NCBI RefSeq assembly: GCF_014635665.1
Contig: NZ_BMDG01000003.1
Location: 62,001 to 126,000 of the forward strand
Length of the DNA: 64,000 nt
Direction: 5' to 3'
DNA from: Isoptericola cucumis
GTDB lineage: Bacteria; Actinomycetota; Actinomycetes; Actinomycetales; Cellulomonadaceae
Position 1 is the stretch's first letter, and each line of letters begins with the position of its first letter. The position numbers and the translations under genes are program-made. Below are positions 36,967-49,598 of this stretch, piece after piece. The notes beneath the pieces are model-generated. The model was not told the origin of the DNA. It saw only the letters and a program-made list of their open reading frames with translations, and made no database searches.

Positions 36967-38622
36967 CTACCGAACTCGGACCCCGAACGTCTCGAGTGTG
37001 TGGACAAGCCGACGCCAGGCGTCGTCGGAGGCAAGCGACCTTGCGCGCTCCGCGACCGCGTTGATGTCGTCGACGAGCCTAGCCGTCTCATCGTCGCGTC
37101 CGTCGGCGTAGCGATGGTCCAGGAGGTAGGGCGATTCACGTACGGAGTGCATCGCCACGGCGTCAAGGAAGACGGTGAGCGAGCGGGCGGCCCGTCGACG
37201 TTCCAGGGCCTGTCTCTCGTCGCGCTCGTCCGTGGTCTCTTCGCCATGCGGCGTGAGCTCTGGACGACCGTCGTCAGCATCCAGCTGGGGAACCACGACC
37301 TTGAACCGGCCCTCCCACAGTCGGCTGAACGCCTCGTCGACGGCGAGGCCGATCACCGTGCCGATCTCGGGACGGCTGTGATCGGTCGTCTCGATCGACT
37401 CCCGGAGGCCGGCCACCTCGTAGGCGAACCGGAGCAGGTTGTCGTCCGTCATCGACGCGCCGACGACGAGAAGGTGCTTGGTGAGCATGAGTGACTGCAC
37501 GAGCGAGCCGACCGGTTTCCAGCGGCTGTCGTAGTGCACGAACGAGCTGCGTGACAGGACGATCGACTCGTGATGCTCGACGTCACCGTGCATCTTCAGC
37601 AGCCAGGGTCGCCCGCTCGACGTTCTGGCCCACGGAAGAACGGCGATGGGAGAGTCGTCCTCGGTCTCGCAGGCCGCCGTCACGGCACGTTCGTAGAGTC
37701 GGTCGTAGTTGGTCGTGACCGCTTCCCGCACCTGAAGGCTCGCGAGCAGGGTATGGGCGAGGCTCGGCCGTGCCGCGTGGTCGCCGACGACCTCGGCCAC
37801 CATTCGGCCGAGCTCTGCCTGCGAGCCCGCAGGGTCGGCCTGGCGGGCCGCCGCGAGGGTCACCTGGACGAGCTCGGCCTGCTCGAGTGGGCCGAGCTTT
37901 TCGATCTTGTCCTTGATCTCGTCGAGCCCCAGCCGATGGACGAGCTCGTCGAGCAGGCCGCGCCACGAGGGGAGGCCTGCAGCGATGCTCACACCGGCAC
38001 CGAAGAACAACGCCACCTCGCCTCGACGAACGCGTTGCCCGAGCTCTTCGGCGATCGTGGCGTCGGCCAGGGTGGGAGGGGTTCCGCTGTCTCGACGCCG
38101 GTGCTGCAGGGCCGCGTAATCGGAACGCTCTGAGGCGACAAGGGCGACGTCGACGCCGAGCCGGTCTGTGGCGTCGCGCAGGGTGGAGACCAGCGCGGCG
38201 ATGACCTGTCCTCGTCGCCGGCTTTGGCCCCCAGCGCCTGTCCCGACGACGGGCATGGCGATGAGGGGTAGGTCGCGACCGGCTGAGTTCGCGGACCGGA
38301 TCAGGATCTCGCTTGAGTGCTCGACGATCGCTTCGACGACGCGGAGTGCCGCTTGGCCCACCTCGGACGGCGAGCCCGCGACGACATCGAGGAACCACAC
38401 CTCGGGCACGGATTCGGCTGTCCGCTTCTGACGTGCTGGTAGTGCAGCGCCGCGGGCCCAGCCCTCAGGACGCAGGTTGTTCCAGGTGTCGCCTGGACCG
38501 AGGCCGACGGTATCGCGCCACCAGTTCCTGACGGCGAACCGTGCGTCCGTGGGAATGACGACGGCGTCGGCGCTCAGCGCGTCGAGCCGGCCGTTGACCA
38601 CGAAGAGGTGCCCGGGCTTCAT
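36967..38622 (-). CDS. Macro-domain-like/SIR2 fusion, defence-effector type
   Basis: A 551-residue protein. Residues 5-178 look like a macro domain (VVNGRLDALSADAVVIPTDARF, MPVVGTGAGG at 123-132), which would bind ADP-ribose-type ligands. Residues 200-450 are a SIR2 domain: FFGAGVSIAAGLPSW (207-220), TTNYDRL (303-309), and KMHGD (343-347) with the catalytic His at 345. SIR2 effectors in phage defence destroy NAD+; here the macro domain could sense or bind the product. It is leaderless from 38622 and 80 bp downstream of the hydrolase gene. Confidence 0.8.
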   Translation of the reverse strand: MKPGHLFVVNGRLDALSADAVVIPTDARFAVRNWWRDTVGLGPGDTWNNLRPEGWARGAALPARQKRTAESVPEVWFLDVVAGSPSEVGQAALRVVEAIVEHSSEILIRSANSAGRDLPLIAMPVVGTGAGGQSRRRGQVIAALVSTLRDATDRLGVDVALVASERSDYAALQHRRRDSGTPPTLADATIAEELGQRVRRGEVALFFGAGVSIAAGLPSWRGLLDELVHRLGLDEIKDKIEKLGPLEQAELVQVTLAAARQADPAGSQAELGRMVAEVVGDHAARPSLAHTLLASLQVREAVTTNYDRLYERAVTAACETEDDSPIAVLPWARTSSGRPWLLKMHGDVEHHESIVLSRSSFVHYDSRWKPVGSLVQSLMLTKHLLVVGASMTDDNLLRFAYEVAGLRESIETTDHSRPEIGTVIGLAVDEAFSRLWEGRFKVVVPQLDADDGRPELTPHGEETTDERDERQALERRRAARSLTVFLDAVAMHSVRESPYLLDHRYADGRDDETARLVDDINAVAERARSLASDDAWRRLVHTLETFGVRVR

Positions 38623-38702: not shown

Positions 38703-40739
38703 CTACTGCGTCGTCACCTGTTCCGATTCTCCGCCACGTTCGGTTCCCGAAAGGGCGGACGCCGACACCACTGCCCGCTTGCGTCGGAGCAGCGATCCCA
38801 CGGCGCCGGCGGTACCTGCCGCGGCGTTCTTGAAGGCCGATCCGGCGTCTTCGGCAGCGGACCGGACGCGAGGCTTGTCCGGAATCCCGTCGCCGTCGAG
38901 GTCGACAGCGCGGAACGCCTCAGTGGCACGCTCGAGAAGAGCCGCGGCGGGGATCTTCGCGGCGTCCGGTTCGTCCGGGCCGAGCCCCGCCGTGCTCAGG
39001 TGAACCAGGGCACGGTCGATCGTCTTCAGCTTGCGCTCGAGCTGCTTGAGGGCTGGCGCGCCGTCGTCCGAGATCGGCGCGAGCCGGGCAAGATCCCGGC
39101 GCAGCTCGATCCCTGTCTCGGCGAGGCTCTCCCATGTCGTCAGGTCCCTGTCGAAGCCTTGCGACTTCCGCAGGAGCGCGGCAGTGAGTTGGCTCGCCAC
39201 GTACGCCTCGACGGCTTCGGTGGTGGTTGCAGGACTCGCGAGACCGACCGCCACTCCGCCGCCGCCGGCGCCGACGAGTGCACCGGCCGTCAACAACCCA
39301 CCGACCATCCCGCCGGGGCCGAACGCCGCGAGCGCGCTGGTGATGGCTGCCGCTCCCGCGACCCCGGGGGCGACAGAGAGAACGAGCCCTCCGGTGGCGA
39401 CGACGAGAGACGCCGCTCCGAGGCCGACGGCGGCCCACTTGATCCAGTTCGTGCCGTCGCCGGAGAGCGCCTTGTCCGCAGCCTCTTCGGCAGCGACCAG
39501 GTCACGAGCGAACTGTCTCCCCAGACCCATCTCGATGGTCAGGTCCTCGAGTGCCTCAGCCCTGATCGCGGGGGAAACGTTGATCTCGAAGGGCTGGACG
39601 ATATTCGTCGTCATGATGCCGATCAGCGGGACGACGCTCTCTTCCTTCGACAGTTGGAGGAGCCGCGCCGGCTCCGGCGCGACCGACGTGGAGTCGCTGA
39701 GGTCGACCGCCAGCTCGCCCACAGCGCCTGGGAGCGGCCTGCCCTCCTGCTCCCTCCGTGTGATCATCGCGTCGACCGCCGTGGACTGGACATGTCGCCG
39801 CGCCTCGGCGTACCGAACCTTCCGGGCGCCGTCGAGCTTGGTCTCGATGAGGAACGCGTACCGCAATGCCAGGAGCATGAGGGTCTCGGGGGTGTCGACT
39901 GGGACGTCGACGCCGGGGTTCGTGACGGTGAGCTCCTTGGACAACGATCCGTGCAGCGCGTAGCCGATCGCGCGTGCCACCAACTCGCTCTGCAGATAGG
40001 TCACGGCGTCGTGCACGCGGTGGTCCACGCGCGCGTTGACGCGATAGTCGGTCATCCACGGGAAGACCGACGAGACACCCCGGTGTGTCGTCACCGCGTC
40101 CGCGGGGTGCCAGAAGCTGACCCACCAGCCCAGGTTCGTCGGGGGCTCCTTCAGCGCCTCTCGCAGCCCATCGACGTGGAAGAGCGAGCTGGACAGCGGG
40201 CTGCCGATGGTCACCATGCCCACCACCTCGACTTCGGCCGGCAGTCGGCGCAGGACGTCCGCGGCGATGACCGATCCCAGGCTGTGGCCCACGACGACGA
40301 GCCGACCCGAGGGCGGCACCTTCGCGAGGACCTTGTTCAGGACGTGGGCCCGGATGCGAGGATCCTTGAGGTAGTTCGCGGCCTGCCGGAACTTCGAGAG
40401 CCTGAGCGATGCCGCGGCGATCGGGTCGCCGCCGAACCATGCGGCACCGGGGTCGTGCGTTCCAAGCATGACTTCAACCGCGCTCTCGCGACGCTCGAAT
40501 TCGCGGCGGTTCTGCTTGGCCGCCTCCCCGGTTGGGGGCTTGACCGTCAGGGCGGGCAGTGGCTCGTCGTCGTCCACGCCGTGCAACGCGTTCGGGTACT
40601 TCGGGGCGATCACCGTCACCCCGTCCAGACTGGGGTACCCCAGCCGGACCATGGCCGCCTCTAGGGCGGTCTTCCACCCATCATCTTGGTCGCCAGTGCC
40701 GACGCCGTGCAGGAACAGGAGGGTGGGCTTCTCTGGCAA
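38703..40739 (-). CDS. Alpha/beta hydrolase with glycine-rich membrane segment, effector type
   Basis: A 678-residue protein. LLFLHGVGTG opens an alpha/beta-hydrolase domain with the nucleophile elbow GHSLGS (Ser153), resembling lipases. Residues 434-502 form a long hydrophobic, Gly/Ala-rich segment (WAAVGLGAASLVV, GPGGMVGGLLTAGALVGAGGGGVAVGL) that could insert in membranes. A helical tail includes an EF-hand-like DLDGDGIPD. The start is TTG at 40739 with AGGAG six bases upstream. It lies between the GmrSD-type and macro-SIR2 genes. It may be a lipase or membrane-disrupting effector; this is an inference. Confidence 0.7.
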   Translation of the reverse strand: MPEKPTLLFLHGVGTGDQDDGWKTALEAAMVRLGYPSLDGVTVIAPKYPNALHGVDDDEPLPALTVKPPTGEAAKQNRREFERRESAVEVMLGTHDPGAAWFGGDPIAAASLRLSKFRQAANYLKDPRIRAHVLNKVLAKVPPSGRLVVVGHSLGSVIAADVLRRLPAEVEVVGMVTIGSPLSSSLFHVDGLREALKEPPTNLGWWVSFWHPADAVTTHRGVSSVFPWMTDYRVNARVDHRVHDAVTYLQSELVARAIGYALHGSLSKELTVTNPGVDVPVDTPETLMLLALRYAFLIETKLDGARKVRYAEARRHVQSTAVDAMITRREQEGRPLPGAVGELAVDLSDSTSVAPEPARLLQLSKEESVVPLIGIMTTNIVQPFEINVSPAIRAEALEDLTIEMGLGRQFARDLVAAEEAADKALSGDGTNWIKWAAVGLGAASLVVATGGLVLSVAPGVAGAAAITSALAAFGPGGMVGGLLTAGALVGAGGGGVAVGLASPATTTEAVEAYVASQLTAALLRKSQGFDRDLTTWESLAETGIELRRDLARLAPISDDGAPALKQLERKLKTIDRALVHLSTAGLGPDEPDAAKIPAAALLERATEAFRAVDLDGDGIPDKPRVRSAAEDAGSAFKNAAAGTAGAVGSLLRRKRAVVSASALSGTERGGESEQVTTQ

Positions 40740-40966: not shown

Positions 40967-43483
40967 TCAGAGGTACGCAGGGAAGATCGCGGCGAACCTC
41001 TCGGCCGTCGTCACGAGCCACTCTGCAAGCTGTGGGGCCTGATCAGCGTCTCGAAAGTCGCCGTTGCCCCGGACGATGATTCGGCTCGCCTTCCTGGTCG
41101 GCAGTTCTAGCCAGTCGAGCCTCGATCCGACCGCAGCTTCGATCTCCGCGCGCTTCGCGTACAACTCGGTAAAGAGTTGCTTGTCGTTAACGATGTACAG
41201 CTCGCAACCGGCTGTCGGCGTGCGCGAGCTCACGGTGAGACTCAGGTGCGCGCGTCCGGTGCCGATGCTGATGTCGAGCCAGTGCTGGGGCTGAGGCTTC
41301 GGCCAGTACTTCACGACTGTGCCGGTCGCTCGGCCGAGGTCGCGTACGCGACCGAAGAATTCGAGTTGTTGGGCCTTGAGATTGTTGGTGCGACCTGACT
41401 CTGATGATGCGTCGGAAGTACGCCAACCGGCTTGGTCTACGTCGAGGCCGGTGAGCGAGGCGAGCTCCGTCGCATCGATGAACTGTTCTGGAGAAGCATG
41501 TCCAGCGTCATCGAAGTTCAGCCCCTCGGATTCGAGGTGGGCCTTCGGGTCGTCCGTGCGACTGGGCTCGTGCCAGCGGAACCCGGGAGAGATGGTTCCC
41601 CCGGTCTGTAAGACGCGCCACGCGTTCGCCATTGAGTAGCTCCCGAGGAGTCCTGCAACAGGCTGCGGATACGTGCCCGCGACGAGGGCGACCTCGCCAT
41701 ACGAGGTCCAACGGCCTGCCGGGATCTCGGCGACGATCGAGGCAACCACAGCGCGGATGGCCGAAGGTTCGTCAGCGACCGACCCGACGACGGTCTCGTC
41801 GGGGCCAGGCCATAGGTCGATGATCTTCGCAGCAAGCGCCGCGCCACGAGCCGCAATCTCGGCGGTTCCCCAAGTGTCGTGCGCAGCGATCTCCTGATTC
41901 ATCCGGAGGCCGCTCTCAGCGAGCATCGTCCTCTTGCTGTGGAAGCCCTTGTTGGAGAGCTCGCTGTTGTACCCGCTGAGAGTGAGGTTCCCCAAAGTGT
42001 GTACGACCCGCTCGTGCTCGTATGTCACGTCTGCCCCGTCGGGAAGCCCGGTGGCGAACGTCTCACGGACTGCCTGGGTGAGGGTCTGAGGCAGGACGTG
42101 TTCGATAGTGAGGTTTGCCGGGTCGACGGCTTCTTTGGAGCCGTACGACTCTTCGATCCACTGCAGGATGAGCTTCTTCTGAGCTGCCCGGCCCTGCCAG
42201 TAGAACGGGACCGTGCTGGCCGCGTCACGGACCTGCTGGTCGGTGGCGTAGTACTTGCGGCCACGGGAAAGAAAGTCGCGGAGTGCGACGTCCACCGGAT
42301 CATCGCCCGAGATGGCGCCGACGGCCTGCAGAAGGGTGCGGTTGAGGCTCGCCGTGGCTCGCCCGATGACGATGCGGCGCACGAAGTAGGACTCGAGATA
42401 GGTCAACGCCCGGGCGACTTCCTCCACAGTTGCGGTGCTCGACGCGCGACGGTCGAGGAGCCGCATCACGACCGGATACGCCGTCGTCGAGCCCCAGGCC
42501 TTGATCCGGCCGAGGCGCCGGCGGATCTCGCCGTCGTCCTCTCGGGCCGGCTCGAGGATCGTCGCCAAGACGTCTCCGAGCTTGGCGACACGCAGAACCT
42601 CGGCCTCGATCTCGTCGACGCTCTTGAGCCGCTCCAACCGCTTCTGCTGGCCGACGTACGTGTCGGACTGCTTGGCACGCTCGTCTGTCTGGACGAGGTC
42701 GAGCCAGAACAACAGTTCGAGGTTTTCTCCGTCGAGTTTCTTCTCCAGCGGCAGCCACACGCTCTCGTAGACGACGTCTGCTTTCTCGCCGAGTCGCATA
42801 AACAAGTAGTTCTTCAGCAGGTCGGACTGATTGAGCTGCAGGCCGGTGTTGTTCAGCGACTCGAAGATCCGATGGGCGTTGTCGCCCGCCTCCGCGGTCA
42901 CGACAACGATGGCGAGTCCGCGCACGACTGCGTTCTCGATCTCTTCCAGGTCGTGTGGGTCGTCCGGGTCGTCCGCCGCCGAGATCTTCGAGCGGAAGTG
43001 GTTGTACGCCTCGCCGACCGCGTCGCTCCCACCTGCCTCCGGCGCAGAGTGCACGACCGCGAGGTAAGCCTCGCGGTCAGCTTGGGTCGGAAGGATCTTC
43101 GTCGGCTTGCCCTTGTCGTACACGTTGACCAGGTACTGCGCGTACACGCCCTCTGCCCGTTCGCGGTCGCCCGTTTTGTTTAGGTGGTCGCGCAGCGCCG
43201 CAAGGAGCAGCGTGAGTGTCGTCAGTCGCTGCTGTCCGTCGACGACGAGCAGCTTGGAGACCCCGACGACTGAGAAGTCGGGGCTGGCAGCGAGGACAAG
43301 CGAGCCGATGAAATGCGTAGCGCCGGGGTCTGTCCGACGCGTTTCGGCGAGCTCGACGATGTCGTTCCACAGCTGGTCGAGCTGCTTCTTCCCCCACGAG
43401 TATGTGCGCTGGTAGAGGGGGACTTGGTATTGCTTCTTGCCCTCAAGTACACCCGCGAGGTTTGTCTCCGTTGCCTTGACCAC
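40967..43483 (-). CDS. GmrSD-type (DUF262-DUF1524) protein fused to an ATL-like and a DUF4268-like domain
   Basis: An 838-residue protein. The DUF262 part (PLYQRTYSW at 22-30, DGQQRLTT at 82-89) is the nucleotide-handling module of type IV restriction enzymes. DUF1524 with an HNH-like centre is EHVLPQ at 461-466 and HTLGNL with SNKGFHSKR at 495-518. Residues about 577-640 match the DNA-binding domain of alkylguanine transferases (IVAEIPAGRWTSYGEVALVAG), but the PCHR motif reads AWRV, so an alkyltransferase-like sensor. Residues about 715-838 look like DUF4268. It starts at GTG 43483 with GGAGG five bases upstream. Confidence 0.8.
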   Translation of the reverse strand: MVKATETNLAGVLEGKKQYQVPLYQRTYSWGKKQLDQLWNDIVELAETRRTDPGATHFIGSLVLAASPDFSVVGVSKLLVVDGQQRLTTLTLLLAALRDHLNKTGDRERAEGVYAQYLVNVYDKGKPTKILPTQADREAYLAVVHSAPEAGGSDAVGEAYNHFRSKISAADDPDDPHDLEEIENAVVRGLAIVVVTAEAGDNAHRIFESLNNTGLQLNQSDLLKNYLFMRLGEKADVVYESVWLPLEKKLDGENLELLFWLDLVQTDERAKQSDTYVGQQKRLERLKSVDEIEAEVLRVAKLGDVLATILEPAREDDGEIRRRLGRIKAWGSTTAYPVVMRLLDRRASSTATVEEVARALTYLESYFVRRIVIGRATASLNRTLLQAVGAISGDDPVDVALRDFLSRGRKYYATDQQVRDAASTVPFYWQGRAAQKKLILQWIEESYGSKEAVDPANLTIEHVLPQTLTQAVRETFATGLPDGADVTYEHERVVHTLGNLTLSGYNSELSNKGFHSKRTMLAESGLRMNQEIAAHDTWGTAEIAARGAALAAKIIDLWPGPDETVVGSVADEPSAIRAVVASIVAEIPAGRWTSYGEVALVAGTYPQPVAGLLGSYSMANAWRVLQTGGTISPGFRWHEPSRTDDPKAHLESEGLNFDDAGHASPEQFIDATELASLTGLDVDQAGWRTSDASSESGRTNNLKAQQLEFFGRVRDLGRATGTVVKYWPKPQPQHWLDISIGTGRAHLSLTVSSRTPTAGCELYIVNDKQLFTELYAKRAEIEAAVGSRLDWLELPTRKASRIIVRGNGDFRDADQAPQLAEWLVTTAERFAAIFPAYL

Positions 43484-43670
43484 GCACGCCTCCGTGTTCT
43501 CAACTGGCCAGCATTGTTGTTCACCATATCGCCCGGTGCGTCTGCCGACACGTGTCCTCCAGTGCGGCGTCGCGTGAGTCGTGCAAGGGACCTCGACGAC
43601 CTGGGGCGGTGGAAGAATTCCGGGGCAGGTTCACAGGGCCACGACGCTGGATGGGACGACGGCACCCGGC

Positions 43671-45106
43671 GTGGCAGACGCCGGGCCGGTGGCCGCGGCG
43701 CTGGCGTGGCTGCGCGGGCTGTGCTTCGACTCGCGGTTGGGTGACGCCGCGGGAGGTGCTCGAGGCGCTCGGCCGATTTCGCCGTCGGTCGGCGGATGCT
43801 GGAGGCTGCGGTGGCCGACCCGCGGTCGCGGGACGTGTGGCGGCGGCTGCGGTTCGTGGTGGACCGGGCGCGGGCGTGGGGCGAGGTGTCGCACGGCGGG
43901 CTGCGCGCGTACCTCGCGTGGGCGGCGCATCAGGGCACGGAGACCACGCAGGTGGCCGAGTCCGTGCTGCCGGAGACTGACGTCGACGCCGTGCGCGTCA
44001 TGACGGTGCACGCCGCCAAGGGGCTGGAGTTCCCGATGGTGGTGCTGTCCGGGATGACGTCGCGGCCGGTGCGGCGGCCGGGGGTGAAGCTGCTGTGGCC
44101 CGACGGCGGCGGGTACGCCGTGCGGTTCCGTGCCGGCGTGGAGACGGACGACTTCGGCGTGGTGCAGCCCGTCGACGAGCAGATGGACGACCTGGAGAAG
44201 CGGCGCCTGCTGTACGTGGCGGCGACGCGGGCGCGCGACCACCTGGTGGTGTCGCTGCATCGGGCCGGTGGCGCGGAGTCGGCGGCGAAGCTGCTCGCCG
44301 AGACCGGTGGTGCCGGGTCGCTGGGGGAGGAGCGGTTCTCCGCTTCGCCTGACGCTGGTGGCGCGCCAGGAGCTGGCGCCGGGGAGGAGGCCGTGGAGCC
44401 ACCGCCGCCGTACGACGTGTGGCTGGCGGGCGTGACCGCCGCGCGGACGAGCAGCGAGCGGGACGCCGCGATCAGCGCGTCCGGGCTGGAGGGTACCGAG
44501 CCGGCGCTGGTGCTGGCCGAGCCGGACGACGTGGCCGAGGGGCAGGCGAAGGGCGGCCGCGACCTGGAGCTGCCGCCGTGGTCGAAGGGCCGGTACGGGT
44601 CTGCGATCGGGCGGGCCGTGCACGCCGTGCTGCAGGCGGTGGACCTCGCCACCGGCGACGGCGTGGACGAGGCCGTGGCCGCGCAGTGCGTGGTCGAGAG
44701 CGTGGTGGGTACCGAGGACCTGGTCGGCGCTCTGGTGCGGTCCGCGCTGGCCAGCGACCTGGTGCAGCGCGCGGCGCAGCGCGAGCACTGGCGGGAGACG
44801 TACGTCGGGACGCTGGACGACGACCCAGATCCTGATGGCACCGTGCTCGAGGGATACGTGGACCTCGTCTTCCGCGACGACGACGGCACGCTCGTCGTCG
44901 TGGACTACAAGACCGACGCCGTCCCGGCGGGCGCGTACCCCAGCCGGGTGGAGTACTACGCCCCGCAGCTGCGGGCGTACGTGCAATGCCTGGGCGACGC
45001 GAATGGCGCGACTGTGCGTGCGGAGCTGTTGTTCCTGCACCCGCAGCGGGCCGTACCAGTGGGTGTCGCCTCAGTTGGAGCAGCGCAGCCCTCAACTGGC
45101 TCATAA
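43671..45106 (+). pseudogene. 3' part of an AddA/RecB-like helicase-nuclease, truncated and frameshifted
   Basis: The sequence reads as the end of a UvrD-type helicase with a RecB nuclease domain: VMTVHAAKGLEFPMVVLSGM (helicase motif V), EKRRLLYVAATRARDHLVV (motif VI), then GRAVHAVLQ and LEGYVDLVF...LVVVDYKTDAV, the nuclease core with its catalytic Asp-Lys. The first two thirds, including Walker A, are missing. Two single-base indels (extra T near 43737, missing G near 43771) break the start. The frame runs into a tRNA-Met 3' end. It is probably non-functional, cut by an insertion or deletion. Confidence 0.8.
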
Positions 45107-45975: not shown

Positions 45976-47091
45976 ATGGCGGCTCAGGTTGGAACGTCTA
46001 CGAAGCAGCAGAGCCTCGCCGACGCCAAGGCTGCTAAAGATGATGAGTTCTACACGCAGCTGAGCGACATCGAGAAGGAGCTGCGGCACTACAAGAAGCA
46101 TTTCAAGGGGAAGGTTGTCTACCTCAACTGTGATGACCCCCGAGAGTCGGAGTTCTTCCATTATTTCAGCTACAACTTCGAGAAGTTGGGTCTGAAGAAG
46201 CTTATCGCTGCGTGTTACAAGAGTCAGAACGTCGACCTGTTCTCGCAGGAGGACAGTGAGCAGGCCGTCTACCTGGAGTACGAAGGTGATAAAGACGGTG
46301 ATCGCGTCCCTGGGCGCGACGAGATCGAGGTGGAGTACTTCGAGGGGGACGGCGATTTCCGCTCGAAGGAGAGCATTGCCCTCCTAGAGCAGGCGGACAT
46401 CGTCGTGACCAACCCTCCGTTCAGCCTGTTTCGCGAGTACATTGCCCAGCTCATTGAGCACGAGAAGAAGTTCCTGATTATCGGGAATATGAACGCGATC
46501 ACGACGAGAGACATCTGGCCGCTCGTCCAGCAAGGAAAGTTTTGGCTTGGTGTCACACGTACGGGCACGGGACAGATGTGGTTCCGGGTTAGCGAAGATT
46601 TCCCAGCCAAGAGCGGTCAACGGATCGGCGAAGACGGGCATCGGTACCAGACGATCGGCAACTCTGCCTGGTTTACGAACTTGGACCACGCGAAGCGGCA
46701 TGAGGATCTCATCCTCTATAAGACGTACGACCCAGATCTGTATCCGGCGTACGACAACTTCGACGCCATCAATGTGTCAAAGGCTGTCGATATACCTATG
46801 GACTTCGATGGCGTGATGGGGGTACCAGTCAGCTTCTTGGGGAGACATAATCCTGACCAATTCGAGATTGTCGGCATCACCAAGACCTGGTTCGGTGCCG
46901 CGACGAAGAAGTACCCAACTCAGATTCAGGTCAGTGCCAATGGTCGAACGAGCGAGGTGTCAAAGCTCAACGACGGAGCGGTGCTCAAGGTGACAACTCC
47001 TCCTCTGGGAAAGACCTACTACAAGATTGATGACGAGTGCTTCATCCAGACGTATCCGCGCATCCTCATCCGACGCAAGGACACCGCATGA
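45976..47091 (+). CDS. EcoRI-type adenine-specific DNA methyltransferase
   Basis: A 371-residue protein. KDDEFYTQLSDIEKEL near the N-terminus and NPPFSLFREYI at 146-156 (catalytic motif IV) identify the EcoRI methyltransferase family, which methylates N6 of adenine. Its base composition (about 50-55% GC by eye) is far lower than its neighbours, a sign of recent transfer. GAGGAAGGG lies upstream of the ATG. The stop overlaps the next ATG by four bases (ATGA). It may protect host DNA from the DUF262-HNH nuclease encoded next. Confidence 0.9.
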   Translation: MAAQVGTSTKQQSLADAKAAKDDEFYTQLSDIEKELRHYKKHFKGKVVYLNCDDPRESEFFHYFSYNFEKLGLKKLIAACYKSQNVDLFSQEDSEQAVYLEYEGDKDGDRVPGRDEIEVEYFEGDGDFRSKESIALLEQADIVVTNPPFSLFREYIAQLIEHEKKFLIIGNMNAITTRDIWPLVQQGKFWLGVTRTGTGQMWFRVSEDFPAKSGQRIGEDGHRYQTIGNSAWFTNLDHAKRHEDLILYKTYDPDLYPAYDNFDAINVSKAVDIPMDFDGVMGVPVSFLGRHNPDQFEIVGITKTWFGAATKKYPTQIQVSANGRTSEVSKLNDGAVLKVTTPPLGKTYYKIDDECFIQTYPRILIRRKDTA

Positions 47092-48239
47092 TGGAGATCA
47101 AACTCCACGAGATCACGGTCCGCGACCTCGTCGAGGACTACGAGGACAACGACGAGCTGGGCGTGAGGGCCTACGGCGGCAAGCTCGACGTCCGCCCGCC
47201 CTACCAGCGGGAGTTCGTCTACAAGGACAGGCAGCGAGACGCCGTGATCGAGACGCTGCGCCGTGATTTCCCGCTCAACGTCATGTACTGGGCCGTCCAG
47301 GACGACGACACGTTCGAGATCATCGACGGCCAGCAGCGCACGATCTCGATCTGCCAGTACGTCGAGGGCGACTTCTCAATTCCCATAGACGGGCACCAGC
47401 TTGCCTTCCACAACCTGCAGAGCGATCAGCAGGAGCAGATCCTCAACTACAAGCTCATGGTCTACTTCTGCCAGGGCACGGACTCCGAGAAGCTTGATTG
47501 GTTCAAGACGATCAACATCGCGGGTGAGGAACTCACCGACCAAGAGCTGCGCAACGCGGTATACCACGGCCCGTGGGTGTCGGCGGCCAAGAAGTACTTC
47601 AGCAAGAACGGCTGCCCGGCATATCAGATCGGCAGTGACTACATGACCGGCGTGGCGATCCGCCAGGACTATCTCGAGACCGCGATCGAGTGGATCAACG
47701 ACGGCAAGGTCGACGAGTACATGCGCGACCACCAGCACGACACCAACGCCAACGAGTTGTGGCTCTACTTCATGGGTGTCATCAACTGGGTCAAGGCGAC
47801 CTTCCCGAAGAAGCATGCCCAGATGAAGTCGGTCAAGTGGGGGCCGCTGTACAACCAGTACAAGGATGCTCACCTCGATCCGGCCAAGCTCGGAGCCCGC
47901 GTCGAGGCCCTGATGGGCGACTTGGACGTGAAGAACAAGCGCGGTATCTATGAGTTCGTGCTCGGCGGTGAGACCGACACGAAACTGCTTCAGGTCCGTG
48001 TGTTCGACGAGAAGACTAAGCTCGCGGCCTACGAGAAGCAGACGAAGAAGGCCAAGACCGATGAGGTGTCCAACTGCCCGCTGTGCGCGGTCGGCACCAA
48101 CGCCAACGCCACACGGATCTACGAACTCAGTGAGATGGACGCCGACCATGTGACCGCGTGGTCCAAGGGCGGCTCGACCGACCTGTCCAACTGCGAGATG
48201 CTCTGCGTTCCGCACAACAGGTCGAAGGGCAACAGGTAG
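47088..48239 (+). CDS. DUF262 and HNH nuclease protein
   Basis: A 383-residue protein. The DUF262 domain has PYQREFVY at 38-45 and DGQQRT at 80-85. A helical middle follows (NELWLYFMGVINWVKATFPKKHA). The C-terminal 60 residues form an HNH nuclease with CPLC, ADHVTAWSKGGSTDLSNCEMLC and a final HNRSKGNR. GmrSD-like proteins of this layout cut DNA after nucleotide-linked control. Coupling to a modification enzyme suggests a restriction pair. The first methionine (47088) is followed by a second at 47091. Confidence 0.85.
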   Translation: MMEIKLHEITVRDLVEDYEDNDELGVRAYGGKLDVRPPYQREFVYKDRQRDAVIETLRRDFPLNVMYWAVQDDDTFEIIDGQQRTISICQYVEGDFSIPIDGHQLAFHNLQSDQQEQILNYKLMVYFCQGTDSEKLDWFKTINIAGEELTDQELRNAVYHGPWVSAAKKYFSKNGCPAYQIGSDYMTGVAIRQDYLETAIEWINDGKVDEYMRDHQHDTNANELWLYFMGVINWVKATFPKKHAQMKSVKWGPLYNQYKDAHLDPAKLGARVEALMGDLDVKNKRGIYEFVLGGETDTKLLQVRVFDEKTKLAAYEKQTKKAKTDEVSNCPLCAVGTNANATRIYELSEMDADHVTAWSKGGSTDLSNCEMLCVPHNRSKGNR

Positions 48240-48246
48240 TTGGGAG

Positions 48247-48762
48247 ATGGTTCTCCCTGCCGACGACTCCCAGCGAGAAGCGATCCGGGACGAGGTGTCT
48301 CGGATCCACGAGAGCGCCGTCTACTCCGCACAGGGGCACTTCGAGGCCGCGAAGGTCTGGCGGTATGTTCACTGGGGTCTCGGTGCGCTGGCTGCGGCAC
48401 TGAGCACCGCGGCGGCCGTGATCACGTTCGCCTCCGACATGCAGGTCCTCTCGGGCGTGATAGCGATCCTTGCGGCCATTACGGCGGCCATCGTGACCGG
48501 TAGCCGGCCGGACAAGCTCGCCGAGCGGGCGCAGAGCTCCGGCAACGACTACACGACCCTGCGCAACGATGCTCGCCGGCTCCGCGACATCGCCGTACCC
48601 TCCGACCCGGTACTCGAACTCCGTGATGCCCTGGCCGAGCTCTCGGGCCGAGCTTCCGAGCTCGACCACGCGGGGGACGTGATCCCGCGCTGGGCCTACA
48701 AGCGCGCCAAGCGCAACATCGAGAGCGACGGCGGTCAGCGATTCGAGGTGGATGGCTCATGA
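48247..48762 (+). CDS. SLATT-type two-transmembrane effector
   Basis: A 171-residue protein. Two membrane helices at about 41-61 and 66-85 (GLGALAAALSTAAAVIT, VIAILAAITAAIV) sit between helical cytoplasmic flanks. This is the SLATT (SMODS and SLOG-associating 2TM) layout, in which nucleotide signals are thought to trigger membrane damage. It begins seven bases after the DUF262 stop, and its own stop overlaps the CD-NTase start by four bases, so it is the effector half of a CBASS-type pair. The family assignment is by topology and context. Confidence 0.75.
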   Translation: MVLPADDSQREAIRDEVSRIHESAVYSAQGHFEAAKVWRYVHWGLGALAAALSTAAAVITFASDMQVLSGVIAILAAITAAIVTGSRPDKLAERAQSSGNDYTTLRNDARRLRDIAVPSDPVLELRDALAELSGRASELDHAGDVIPRWAYKRAKRNIESDGGQRFEVDGS

Positions 48763-49598
48763 CGGCTACGGCTGGCTCGACGTTGGACTCGATCATCCGG
48801 GATGTGACCCCCGACGAGGACGCCCGGAGCACCGCGGCCAGCCATCGCGCCTCCGTCGAGTCGTGGCTCACGCAGGATCTGAACATCGTCAGGATGCGTG
48901 AGACGGGCTCGTGGCATCACGGCACCGCGATCACCGGTTCCAGCGACGTCGACTATTTCGTGACGATGCCGGGTTCGAGGCCGGAGTATTCGTCGACCGC
49001 CTTGGAGAAGCTGCGCGACTCGCTCCTGCGCGGGCTCTCGAACTGCGTGGTGCGCATCGACCGGCCCGCGGTGCGTCTGGTCTACTTCGATGGCGGTCCC
49101 GACGTGGAGATCACGCCGGCCTACTACAGGGACACCGACGACTACGACATCCCTGACCCGGACGGGATCGGCTGGATCCAGAGCAATCCTGCCGTCCACC
49201 TGGACTACGTGAACGAGGCTCAGCAGAAGACGAACGGCAGAGCGAAGAGCTTGATCCGGCTGGTGAAGACGTGGAAGGCGCGGAACTCGGTCCCGCTGTC
49301 GTCCTTCTACCTCGAGATGCGCGCTGCCCAGTACGCCCTTGCCAACGATCCCCTCATCTACGACTGGGACCTCCGGAACTTGTTCAGGGGGCTCTCCTCG
49401 GACGGCCTGCGCGAGATGAACGATCCGACGCACTACGGCCGGCGTATCTCGACCGGGACCGGCGGCAACGACTTCATGGCGAAGTACGCGGTCGACGAGG
49501 CTGCGCGACTGTCCGCGCTGGCCAAAGTTGCCTCCGACGCTGACGACCATGCCACGGCTGTGAACTACTGGGTGCAGCTGTTCAAGGTGCGGGCATAG
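48759..49598 (+). CDS. SMODS-type CD-NTase (CBASS signal synthase)
   Basis: A 279-residue nucleotidyltransferase. GS at 50-51 and SDVDYFV (Asp63, Asp65) form the GS-X(n)-DxD catalytic site; DVEITPAY at 115-122 supplies the third acidic residue, Glu in place of Asp. A helical thumb follows (GRAKSLIRLVKTWKA). CD-NTases make cyclic di- or tri-nucleotides on phage infection and the signal activates the effector, here the SLATT protein. No Cap2/Cap3 ubiquitin-like genes are present, as in minimal type I CBASS. Confidence 0.85.
   Translation: MTATAGSTLDSIIRDVTPDEDARSTAASHRASVESWLTQDLNIVRMRETGSWHHGTAITGSSDVDYFVTMPGSRPEYSSTALEKLRDSLLRGLSNCVVRIDRPAVRLVYFDGGPDVEITPAYYRDTDDYDIPDPDGIGWIQSNPAVHLDYVNEAQQKTNGRAKSLIRLVKTWKARNSVPLSSFYLEMRAAQYALANDPLIYDWDLRNLFRGLSSDGLREMNDPTHYGRRISTGTGGNDFMAKYAVDEAARLSALAKVASDADDHATAVNYWVQLFKVRA

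What the first reader, a model, noticed from the sequence alone, without database searches (positions are those of the whole stretch)
40967..43483. GmrSD-type restriction protein with an alkyltransferase-like domain
After the DUF262 and DUF1524 parts the protein carries a domain like the DNA-binding part of O6-alkylguanine transferase, but with AWRV where PCHR should be, as in ATL damage-sensing proteins, then a DUF4268-like end. It suggests recognition of alkylated or bulky-modified phage bases.
Basis: partly seen in the sequence, partly recalled or inferred. Interest (0 to 1): 0.6.

Follow-up and report, generated by a model that had tools for sequence, protein, structure and literature searches.

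The report
Restriction enzyme with cysteine-less alkyltransferase reader
This bacterial gene encodes a probable anti-phage DNA-cutting enzyme carrying a DNA-repair-type domain that has lost its repair cysteine, and the same altered domain turns up on several other kinds of DNA-defence protein, which suggests a shared sensor for unusual DNA.

Summary
The 838-aa minus-strand gene (40967-43483) encodes DUF262 (GmrS), DUF1524 (GmrD), a PF01035 alkyltransferase domain and DUF4268. Residues 566-683 fold with high confidence (pLDDT 90.5); the best structural matches are alkyltransferase-like (ATL) proteins. The catalytic cysteine is alanine (NAWR where PCHR is expected). None of 33 GmrSD-fused domains found by profile search has cysteine, against 27 of 42 ordinary relatives. 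The arginine finger said to be conserved in AGTs and ATLs is lost too (Arg in 1 of 33 against 39 of 42; glutamine here). So it has the ATL fold but is not a standard ATL.

GmrSD with PF01035 was reported in 2015 (PMC4619093), mainly from Streptomyces. What my limited searches did not find in print is the cysteine/arginine loss, or that the same subfamily sits on McrB-like proteins paired with McrC, on a nuclease-like family with weak NucS resemblance, and on an Mrr_N-like protein. That favours a portable DNA-state reader for restriction. The ligand is unknown. DUF4268 models like YbjN and secretion chaperones, perhaps for dimerisation.

The parts
40967..43483 (-). GmrSD-ATL-DUF4268 gene, 838 aa, GTG start
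   Evidence: single frame in L002 (79%) and L003 (76%)
43489..43493 (-). GGAGG ribosome-binding-like site, 5 bases before the GTG
   Evidence: sequence
42800..43453 (-). GmrSD_N / DUF262 domain, residues 11-228
   Evidence: Pfam PF03235 1.4e-34
43226..43240 (-). DGQQR nucleotide-hydrolysis motif, residues 82-86
   Evidence: sequence; aligned with DndI; motif role from passages of PMC11662687
41828..42244 (-). GmrSD_C / DUF1524 HNH nuclease domain, residues 414-552 (H462, N499, N506)
   Evidence: Pfam PF07510 6.5e-23; H462, N499, N506 invariant in the 38-row alignment A5
41453..41764 (-). Cysteine-less AGT/ATL-fold domain, residues 574-677
   Evidence: PF01035; model pLDDT 90.5; ATL matches
41609..41626 (-). 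NAWRVL, residues 620-625, in place of PCHRVV: Ala at the Cys site, Trp at the His site
41708..41710 (-). Trp592, conserved in the restriction-type subfamily
   Evidence: 69 of 69 rows of A4; all GmrSD-fused rows
41663..41665 (-). Gln607 at the arginine-finger position (R39 of Atl1)
   Evidence: alignment printed; Arg in 1 of 33 GmrSD-fused rows
40970..41380 (-). DUF4268 region, residues 702-838; YbjN/type III secretion chaperone-like in the model
   Evidence: Pfam PF14088 728-837; VIA Z 8.4 to SycT over 705-838

Best explanation
A single-gene Type IV (modification-dependent) restriction enzyme of the GmrSD family. DUF262 binds and hydrolyses a nucleotide through DGQQR, and DUF1524 is an HNH nuclease that nicks or cuts DNA. 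The next domain has the AGT/ATL fold but cannot do alkyl transfer because the nucleophile is alanine. It most likely scans DNA as a reader of altered bases or altered helix and licenses the nuclease on foreign, probably modified, phage DNA. It must do so without the usual arginine finger, so it either flips bases with other residues (Gln607, Tyr595, Trp592) or reads them without full flipping. DUF4268 probably holds a dimer together. Shown: the domains, predicted folds, catalytic motifs, loss of cysteine and arginine, and recurrence on other defence-type proteins.
For: Domains and motifs. ATL fold with high confidence. Core like DndI, SspE and BrxU. 0 of 33 GmrSD-fused domains have Cys. The same subfamily lies N-terminal of an McrB-like AAA domain with McrC overlapping its end (L064, L113: PF10117 2.9e-58 and 7.1e-59), at the end of a nuclease-like family (L091, L098, L099; front parts 42-52% alike; NucS_C under its cut-off in L099 and L116) and on an Mrr_N-like protein (L097). 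In the domain tree the GmrSD-borne copies do not form one clade (AU p 0.028, test chosen after seeing the tree). No recurrent partner gene in 28 loci. The host has two PCHR proteins and one PWWR ATL-like protein elsewhere, so repair is covered without it.
Against: No binding or cleavage data. The arginine finger and the motif proline are gone, so ATL-like base flipping may be lost. Tyr595 is not kept in 4 of 33; L132 and L133, from another genus of the same family, have diverged motifs. In McrB-like proteins the domain stands beside another candidate reader (Mrr_N-like). In DndI a residue of the DUF262 part (Y25) is implicated in sensing (PMC11662687 passages), so a separate reader may not be needed. 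BrxU recognises several cytosine modifications (PMC12409352 passages) and its matched chain ends where the ATL domain would begin. PF01035 stays under its cut-off in several of the fusions tested.
Confidence: 0.55

Rival explanations
1. The domain is only a non-specific DNA-binding winged-helix tether that raises affinity or positions the nuclease; discrimination of foreign DNA is made by DUF262/DUF1524.
For: Arginine finger absent in 32 of 33. BrxU, a GmrSD enzyme, recognises modified cytosines (PMC12409352 passages). Helix-turn-helix part retained in the model.
Against: Trp592 and the A-x-R-V-L motif region are strongly conserved, more than a mere tether would seem to need; whether they line a pocket was not measured.
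Confidence: 0.25
2. It senses alkylation damage such as O6-alkylguanine in host DNA and triggers nuclease action, as damage-coupled cleavage or altruistic death.
For: ATLs recognise O6-alkylguanine, and ATL-EndoV and AGT-EndoV fusions exist in archaea (PMC10779285 passages).
Against: Arginine finger lost; host carries two PCHR proteins and a PWWR one; other fusion partners look like restriction proteins.
Confidence: 0.1
3. It works like SspE or DndI, in which a DUF262 protein senses phosphorothioated self DNA, and the extra domain is accessory.
For: Closest solved cores are DndI (VIA Z 20.7) and SspE (17.6).
Against: No DndB or DndC match in the host genome; no recurrent partner genes. Ssp proteins were not searched.
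Confidence: 0.05
4. The domain is a decaying remnant with a structural role only.
For: L132 and L133 have lost Tyr595 and FxW.
Against: Trp592 in 69 of 69 rows of A4; recurrence on different scaffolds.
Confidence: 0.05

Closest known systems
GmrSD homologues with PF01035 (Machnicka et al. 2015, PMC4619093)
   Same: DUF262-DUF1524 proteins with a DNA_binding_1 domain, noted in several homologues, mainly Streptomyces; DUF4268 also listed among added domains (passages)
   Different: The passages I saw do not mention the missing cysteine, the missing arginine finger, or the same subfamily on other restriction-type proteins; whole text and supplements not read
ATL proteins (S. pombe Atl1 3gva/3gx4; 2kif of V. 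parahaemolyticus, titled a methyltransferase-family protein but without the Cys)
   Same: Fold, no catalytic Cys, flipping tyrosine kept (Y595)
   Different: Ala instead of Trp at the Cys site, Asn for the motif Pro, Gln for the arginine finger, Trp592 added; fused to a nuclease
DndI / SspE / BrxU
   Same: DUF262 + DUF1524 core, DGQQR and HNH residues
   Different: Matched chains cover the core only (model residues up to about 576); DndI and SspE work with phosphorothioation genes, and dndB and dndC were not found here
McrBC
   Same: The same ATL-type subfamily is fused before the AAA domain of McrB-like L064 and L111 (PF01035; under cut-off in L111) and of L109 and L136 (my profile only)
   Different: Different motor and nuclease; here a single protein
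Archaeal ATL-EndoV and AGT-EndoV fusions (PMC10779285 passages)
   Same: An AGT/ATL domain joined to a nuclease
   Different: EndoV is a repair nuclease; here the partner is a restriction-type core

Membership tests
GmrSD family (Type IV restriction) | DUF262 with DGQQR | tested here: met
   PF03235 1.4e-34; D82-R86
GmrSD family (Type IV restriction) | DUF1524 with HNH residues | tested here: met
   PF07510 6.5e-23; H462, N499, N506 invariant in 38 rows
GmrSD family (Type IV restriction) | cleaves modified DNA | not testable with these tools
   needs protein and phage assays
ATL proteins | AGT C-terminal domain fold | tested here: met
   VIA Z 12.1 (3gx4), 10.7 (3gva), 10.0 (2kif); first row outside the AGT/ATL family Z 4.1
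ATL proteins | catalytic Cys absent | tested here: met
   A621; 0 of 33 GmrSD-fused rows with Cys
ATL proteins | base-flipping tyrosine | tested here: met
   Y595 opposite Y25 of Atl1 (alignment); Tyr in 29 of 33
ATL proteins | arginine finger | tested here: not met
   Q607 opposite R39 of Atl1; Arg in 1 of 33 against 39 of 42 ordinary rows. A PCHR protein of the host (L118) also has Gln here by eye
AGT (O6-alkylguanine transferase) | PCHR nucleophile | tested here: not met
   NAWR
DndI/SspE phosphorothioate systems | dnd modification genes in the host | tested here: not met
   0 matches to DndB and DndC in the host genome; controls rang in 2 of 14 for DndB, and in 5 of 14 (none over the cut-off) for DndC; Ssp genes not tested
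DUF4268 | PF14088 match | tested here: met
   3.4e-20

The most novel reading that the evidence does not exclude
Actinomycetota use a dedicated, portable base reader derived from an alkyltransferase: cysteine to alanine, arginine finger lost, tryptophan gained. It has been plugged into at least three different restriction-type machines (GmrSD, McrBC-like, and a nuclease-like family with weak NucS resemblance). Because an AGT pocket is shaped for guanine, its targets may be modified guanines of actinophages, such as the 7-deazaguanine family (recalled, not from a call), rather than the cytosine marks known for GmrSD.
Probability: 0.35. Interest if true: 0.75.

Novelty: new variant of a known kind. 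Interest (0 to 1): 0.52.

Why it matters
How a GmrSD enzyme (BrxU) recognises modified bases is stated to be unclear (PMC12409352 passages). A separable reader domain with a known fold, shared by GmrSD, McrB-like and other nuclease-like proteins, would make that question directly testable by domain swaps and binding assays. It would add a fold to the PUA-superfamily and winged-helix readers that PMC11037411 describes (passages).

Tried and rejected
Rejected: active alkyltransferase (no Cys). Phosphorothioate partner: no DndB or DndC in the host. Phage-borne copies: none of 20 pattern matches in viral contigs encodes a relative; the 10 phage records hit cover at most 67% of the query, the GmrSD core only. 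A conserved neighbour gene: none in more than 4 of 28 loci, apart from frames lying over the gene itself (frames of 100 aa or more, flanks of 5 kb or less, the window with 14 kb). DUF4268 homology of the C-terminal part of the other GmrSD-ATL proteins: hhalign probability 2.8% on noisy alignments, so undecided. The five NucS-like rows as one clade: not rejected (p 0.357). Promoter scan: none found; terminator-like sites 3 against 2.1 expected. The models' coordinates were not in my Python box, so pocket geometry was not measured.

Bias told: the genome-contig scan used a pattern with Ala at the Cys site and RVL after it, so its 42 loci were left out of the Cys counts; but they are in A4, where part of the motif conservation is therefore by construction. 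The profiles used were themselves built from rows without Cys (A4 includes rows). The counts come from loci handed out (at most 30 per search). Of 123 hits 95 were left after removing duplicates; L008 was then found to be a cut second copy of L127 and dropped, leaving 94 (still had it). Three of the 94 have no residue at 592 and fall in no group. Some ordinary rows are near-identical. The ordinary set was defined by lacking Trp592, so the Trp592 contrast is circular; the Cys and Arg contrasts are less so. The 16 Trp592 rows without a GmrS/GmrD hit include fragments of probably broken GmrSD frames (L012, L092, L107). The McrB, NucS and other labels were assigned by me.

Full report
What is there. 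The gene lies on the minus strand, 43483 to 40967, 838 aa, GTG start with GGAGG five bases upstream. Pfam finds GmrSD_N 11-228, GmrSD_C 414-552, DNA_binding_1 579-654 (27.7 bits, cut-off 27) and DUF4268 728-837. NCBIfam has no match. PADLOC ranks 'Orf5' and HEC-06 models over the DUF262-DUF1524 part first and gives PDC-S11 for the C-terminal end. The catalytic motifs are whole: D82-GQQ-R86, and H462, N499, N506, the last three invariant in 38 homologues, aligned with DndI of solved structure. In DndI the DGQQR motif serves nucleotide hydrolysis and N541 the nuclease (passages of PMC11662687); in the alignment, DndI N541 falls opposite N506 (my counting).

The ATL domain is real. By single sequence the PDB hits for residues 562-661 are weak: 2kif (0.0086), 3gva (0.56) and an unrelated entry (0.79). 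With a profile of 38 homologues the first two rise to 2.8e-6 and 3e-7. The domain model (69 rows) has pLDDT 90.5 and pTM 0.83. Foldseek's first three hits are 2kif, 3gva and 3gx4 (only the first two under 0.001). VIA-align gives Z 12.1 (3gx4, rmsd 3.3, 97 aligned), 10.7 (3gva, 1.9, 90) and 10.0 (2kif, 2.9, 95); the first row outside the AGT/ATL family has Z 4.1. In the full model (pLDDT 84.8, pTM 0.61) residues 4-562 match DndI (Z 20.7, rmsd 7.3) and more loosely BrxU (Z 10.3, rmsd 19.2), 572-673 match Atl1 (Z 10.0), and 705-838 match secretion chaperones (SycT, Z 8.4, rmsd 3.6, 113 aligned) and YbjN (Z 7.9). A Z near 8 may be only a common arrangement, so the DUF4268 reading is tentative. Dimerisation is my inference from that fold (recalled to be dimeric).

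What is altered. The review PMC10779285 (passages) says that ATLs keep the helix-turn-helix, arginine finger and tyrosine, and that in most the cysteine is tryptophan. Here Cys is Ala621, His is Trp622, Pro is Asn620 and the finger is Gln607; Tyr595 and Glu653 are kept. In the profile-found set (94 rows), 33 GmrSD-fused domains have Ala 29, Gly 2, Pro 1, Val 1 at the Cys site and no Cys; at the finger Arg 1, Gln 18, Val 10, Ala 3, Gly 1; FxW in 28; Trp592 in all (counted on 34 before L008 was dropped). Sixteen further Trp592 rows, in frames without a GmrS or GmrD hit, have no Cys (15 have a residue there) and Arg at the finger in 3. Forty-two ordinary rows have Cys 27, Trp 14, Ser 1; Arg 39; Pro at 620 in 40; Trp592 in none by definition. 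Against a strict reading, one PCHR protein of the host (L118) has Gln at the finger by eye, as do 2 of the 42 ordinary rows.

Where else it occurs. A scan of genome contigs (84,980 species by the tool's description) found 156 pattern matches, of which 42 encode relatives, all with titles of Actinomycetota organisms as I read them (the pattern requires Ala). L040-L053 all carry the window's GmrS, GmrD, ATL and DUF4268 parts (14 of 14), one of them (L049) in a shortened frame. Others carry the domain with a different C-terminal part, or at the very end of a different GmrSD core (L013-L015, L090). Of four such GmrSD fusions given to Pfam, PF01035 passes its cut-off in two (L061, L065) and not in two (L054, L056). 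A Streptomyces plasmid carries a 43% identical protein over 83% of the query, annotated as DUF262. Beyond GmrSD: L064, an McrB-like AAA protein (PF01035 7.1e-7, over its cut-off) with an McrC gene (2.9e-58) overlapping its end; L111, likewise McrB-like (PF01035 0.0011, under cut-off) with McrC overlapping (7.1e-59, seen in L113); L091 (1.5e-6, over), L099 (9.1e-5, under) and L098/L116 (2.4e-5, under), which share a front part (L091-L099 52%, L098-L099 42%) with NucS_C hits under the cut-off in L099 (3.1e-4) and L116 (0.0053) and none in L091; and L097 (2.3e-8, over) with very weak Mrr_N (0.054) and HEPN (0.078) hits. L109 and L136 are McrB-like and were matched by my profile only (for L109 25 of 29 Pfam rows were shown, for L136 Pfam was not run). 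Frequency: 31 of 297 genomes of the order and 33 of 396 of the phylum have a match at 1e-10, many of them ordinary AGTs.

History of the domain. In a tree of 91 rows (106 columns, few for so many rows; bootstrap not settled) 18 of the 19 ordinary AGT/ATL rows are set apart by a branch of 1.48 (100/99); the nineteenth, L023, carries Trp592 and no Cys and falls among the others. GmrSD and NucS-like copies intermix at starred forks, and two of three McrB-like copies form a starred group with L097. Several of these are long branches. Holding all GmrSD copies together is disfavoured (AU p 0.028); holding the NucS-like copies together is not (p 0.357). The tests were chosen after the tree was seen. 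The simplest reading is exchange of one module among restriction scaffolds.

Context. The gene seems to stand alone: no neighbour recurs in more than 4 of 28 loci apart from frames lying over the gene. In the window it sits in a defence island, with a SIR2-domain gene, an alpha/beta hydrolase, an EcoRI-type methylase with a DUF262-HNH enzyme, and a CD-NTase with a 2TM effector. The host has two PCHR proteins and one PWWR protein elsewhere.

What is known and what is new. GmrSD with PF01035, and GmrSD with DUF4268, were reported by Machnicka et al. 2015 (passages of PMC4619093). Searches: GmrSD with alkyltransferase (none); alkyltransferase-like, restriction, DUF262 (46, 20 listed, none of the 20 holding 'alkyltransferase-like'); McrB with alkylguanine (three, none on this by title and abstract); McrBC, MGMT, Type IV restriction (62, 20 listed); alkyltransferase-like, defense, McrBC (377, 10 listed, none of the 10 holding 'alkyltransferase-like'); methylguanine with GmrSD (two, the 2015 paper and a McrBC paper seen in listing only); a wider one (514, 15 listed). 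None of the listed titles and abstract starts describes the cysteine loss or the McrB-like and NucS-like fusions. The McrBC census PMC11090510 has no 'alkyl', 'methylguanine' or 'MGMT' in its main text (supplements not read). Subscription papers are not covered. I therefore call it a new variant of a known kind.

Noticed in passing
L064:2-3468; L113:2496-6213: McrB-like proteins with an Mrr_N-like part and a cysteine-less ATL-type domain before the AAA domain, with an McrC gene overlapping the end.
   Followed up: partly
L091, L095, L096, L098, L099 (wider stretches L115-L117): A family of proteins (frames of 449-519 aa) with a front part weakly like NucS_C that ends in the same ATL-type domain.
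   Followed up: partly
L097:247-2223: Protein with a very weak Mrr_N-like start, an ATL-type domain and a very weak HEPN hit.
   Followed up: no
L068, L069, L071-L075, L077-L081: ATL-type domains, mostly in short frames, in Solirubrobacterales and relatives; AHRVL motif, no FxW, and Arg at the finger in 7 of the 13 rows of this group, which also holds L016 and L017.
   Followed up: no
window 40970-41380: DUF4268 models like YbjN and type III secretion chaperones (Z about 8), a fold hint for a domain of unknown function.
   Followed up: partly
window 36967-38622: SIR2-domain gene (PF13289 at 300-405) with about 190 residues ahead of its SIR2-type part that have no Pfam match, next to an alpha/beta hydrolase gene at 38703-40640.
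   Followed up: no
window 43796-45106: Frame of 436 aa matching the C-terminal helicase and PD-(D/E)XK part of AddA/RecB-like proteins, without the N-terminal part, next to the gene.
   Followed up: no
window 45976-49598: EcoRI-type methylase, DUF262-HNH enzyme, 2TM CBASS effector and CD-NTase in a row.
   Followed up: no
L132, L133: Relatives of the window protein in another genus of the same family whose ATL-type domain has lost Tyr595 and FxW, perhaps another specificity or decay.
   Followed up: no
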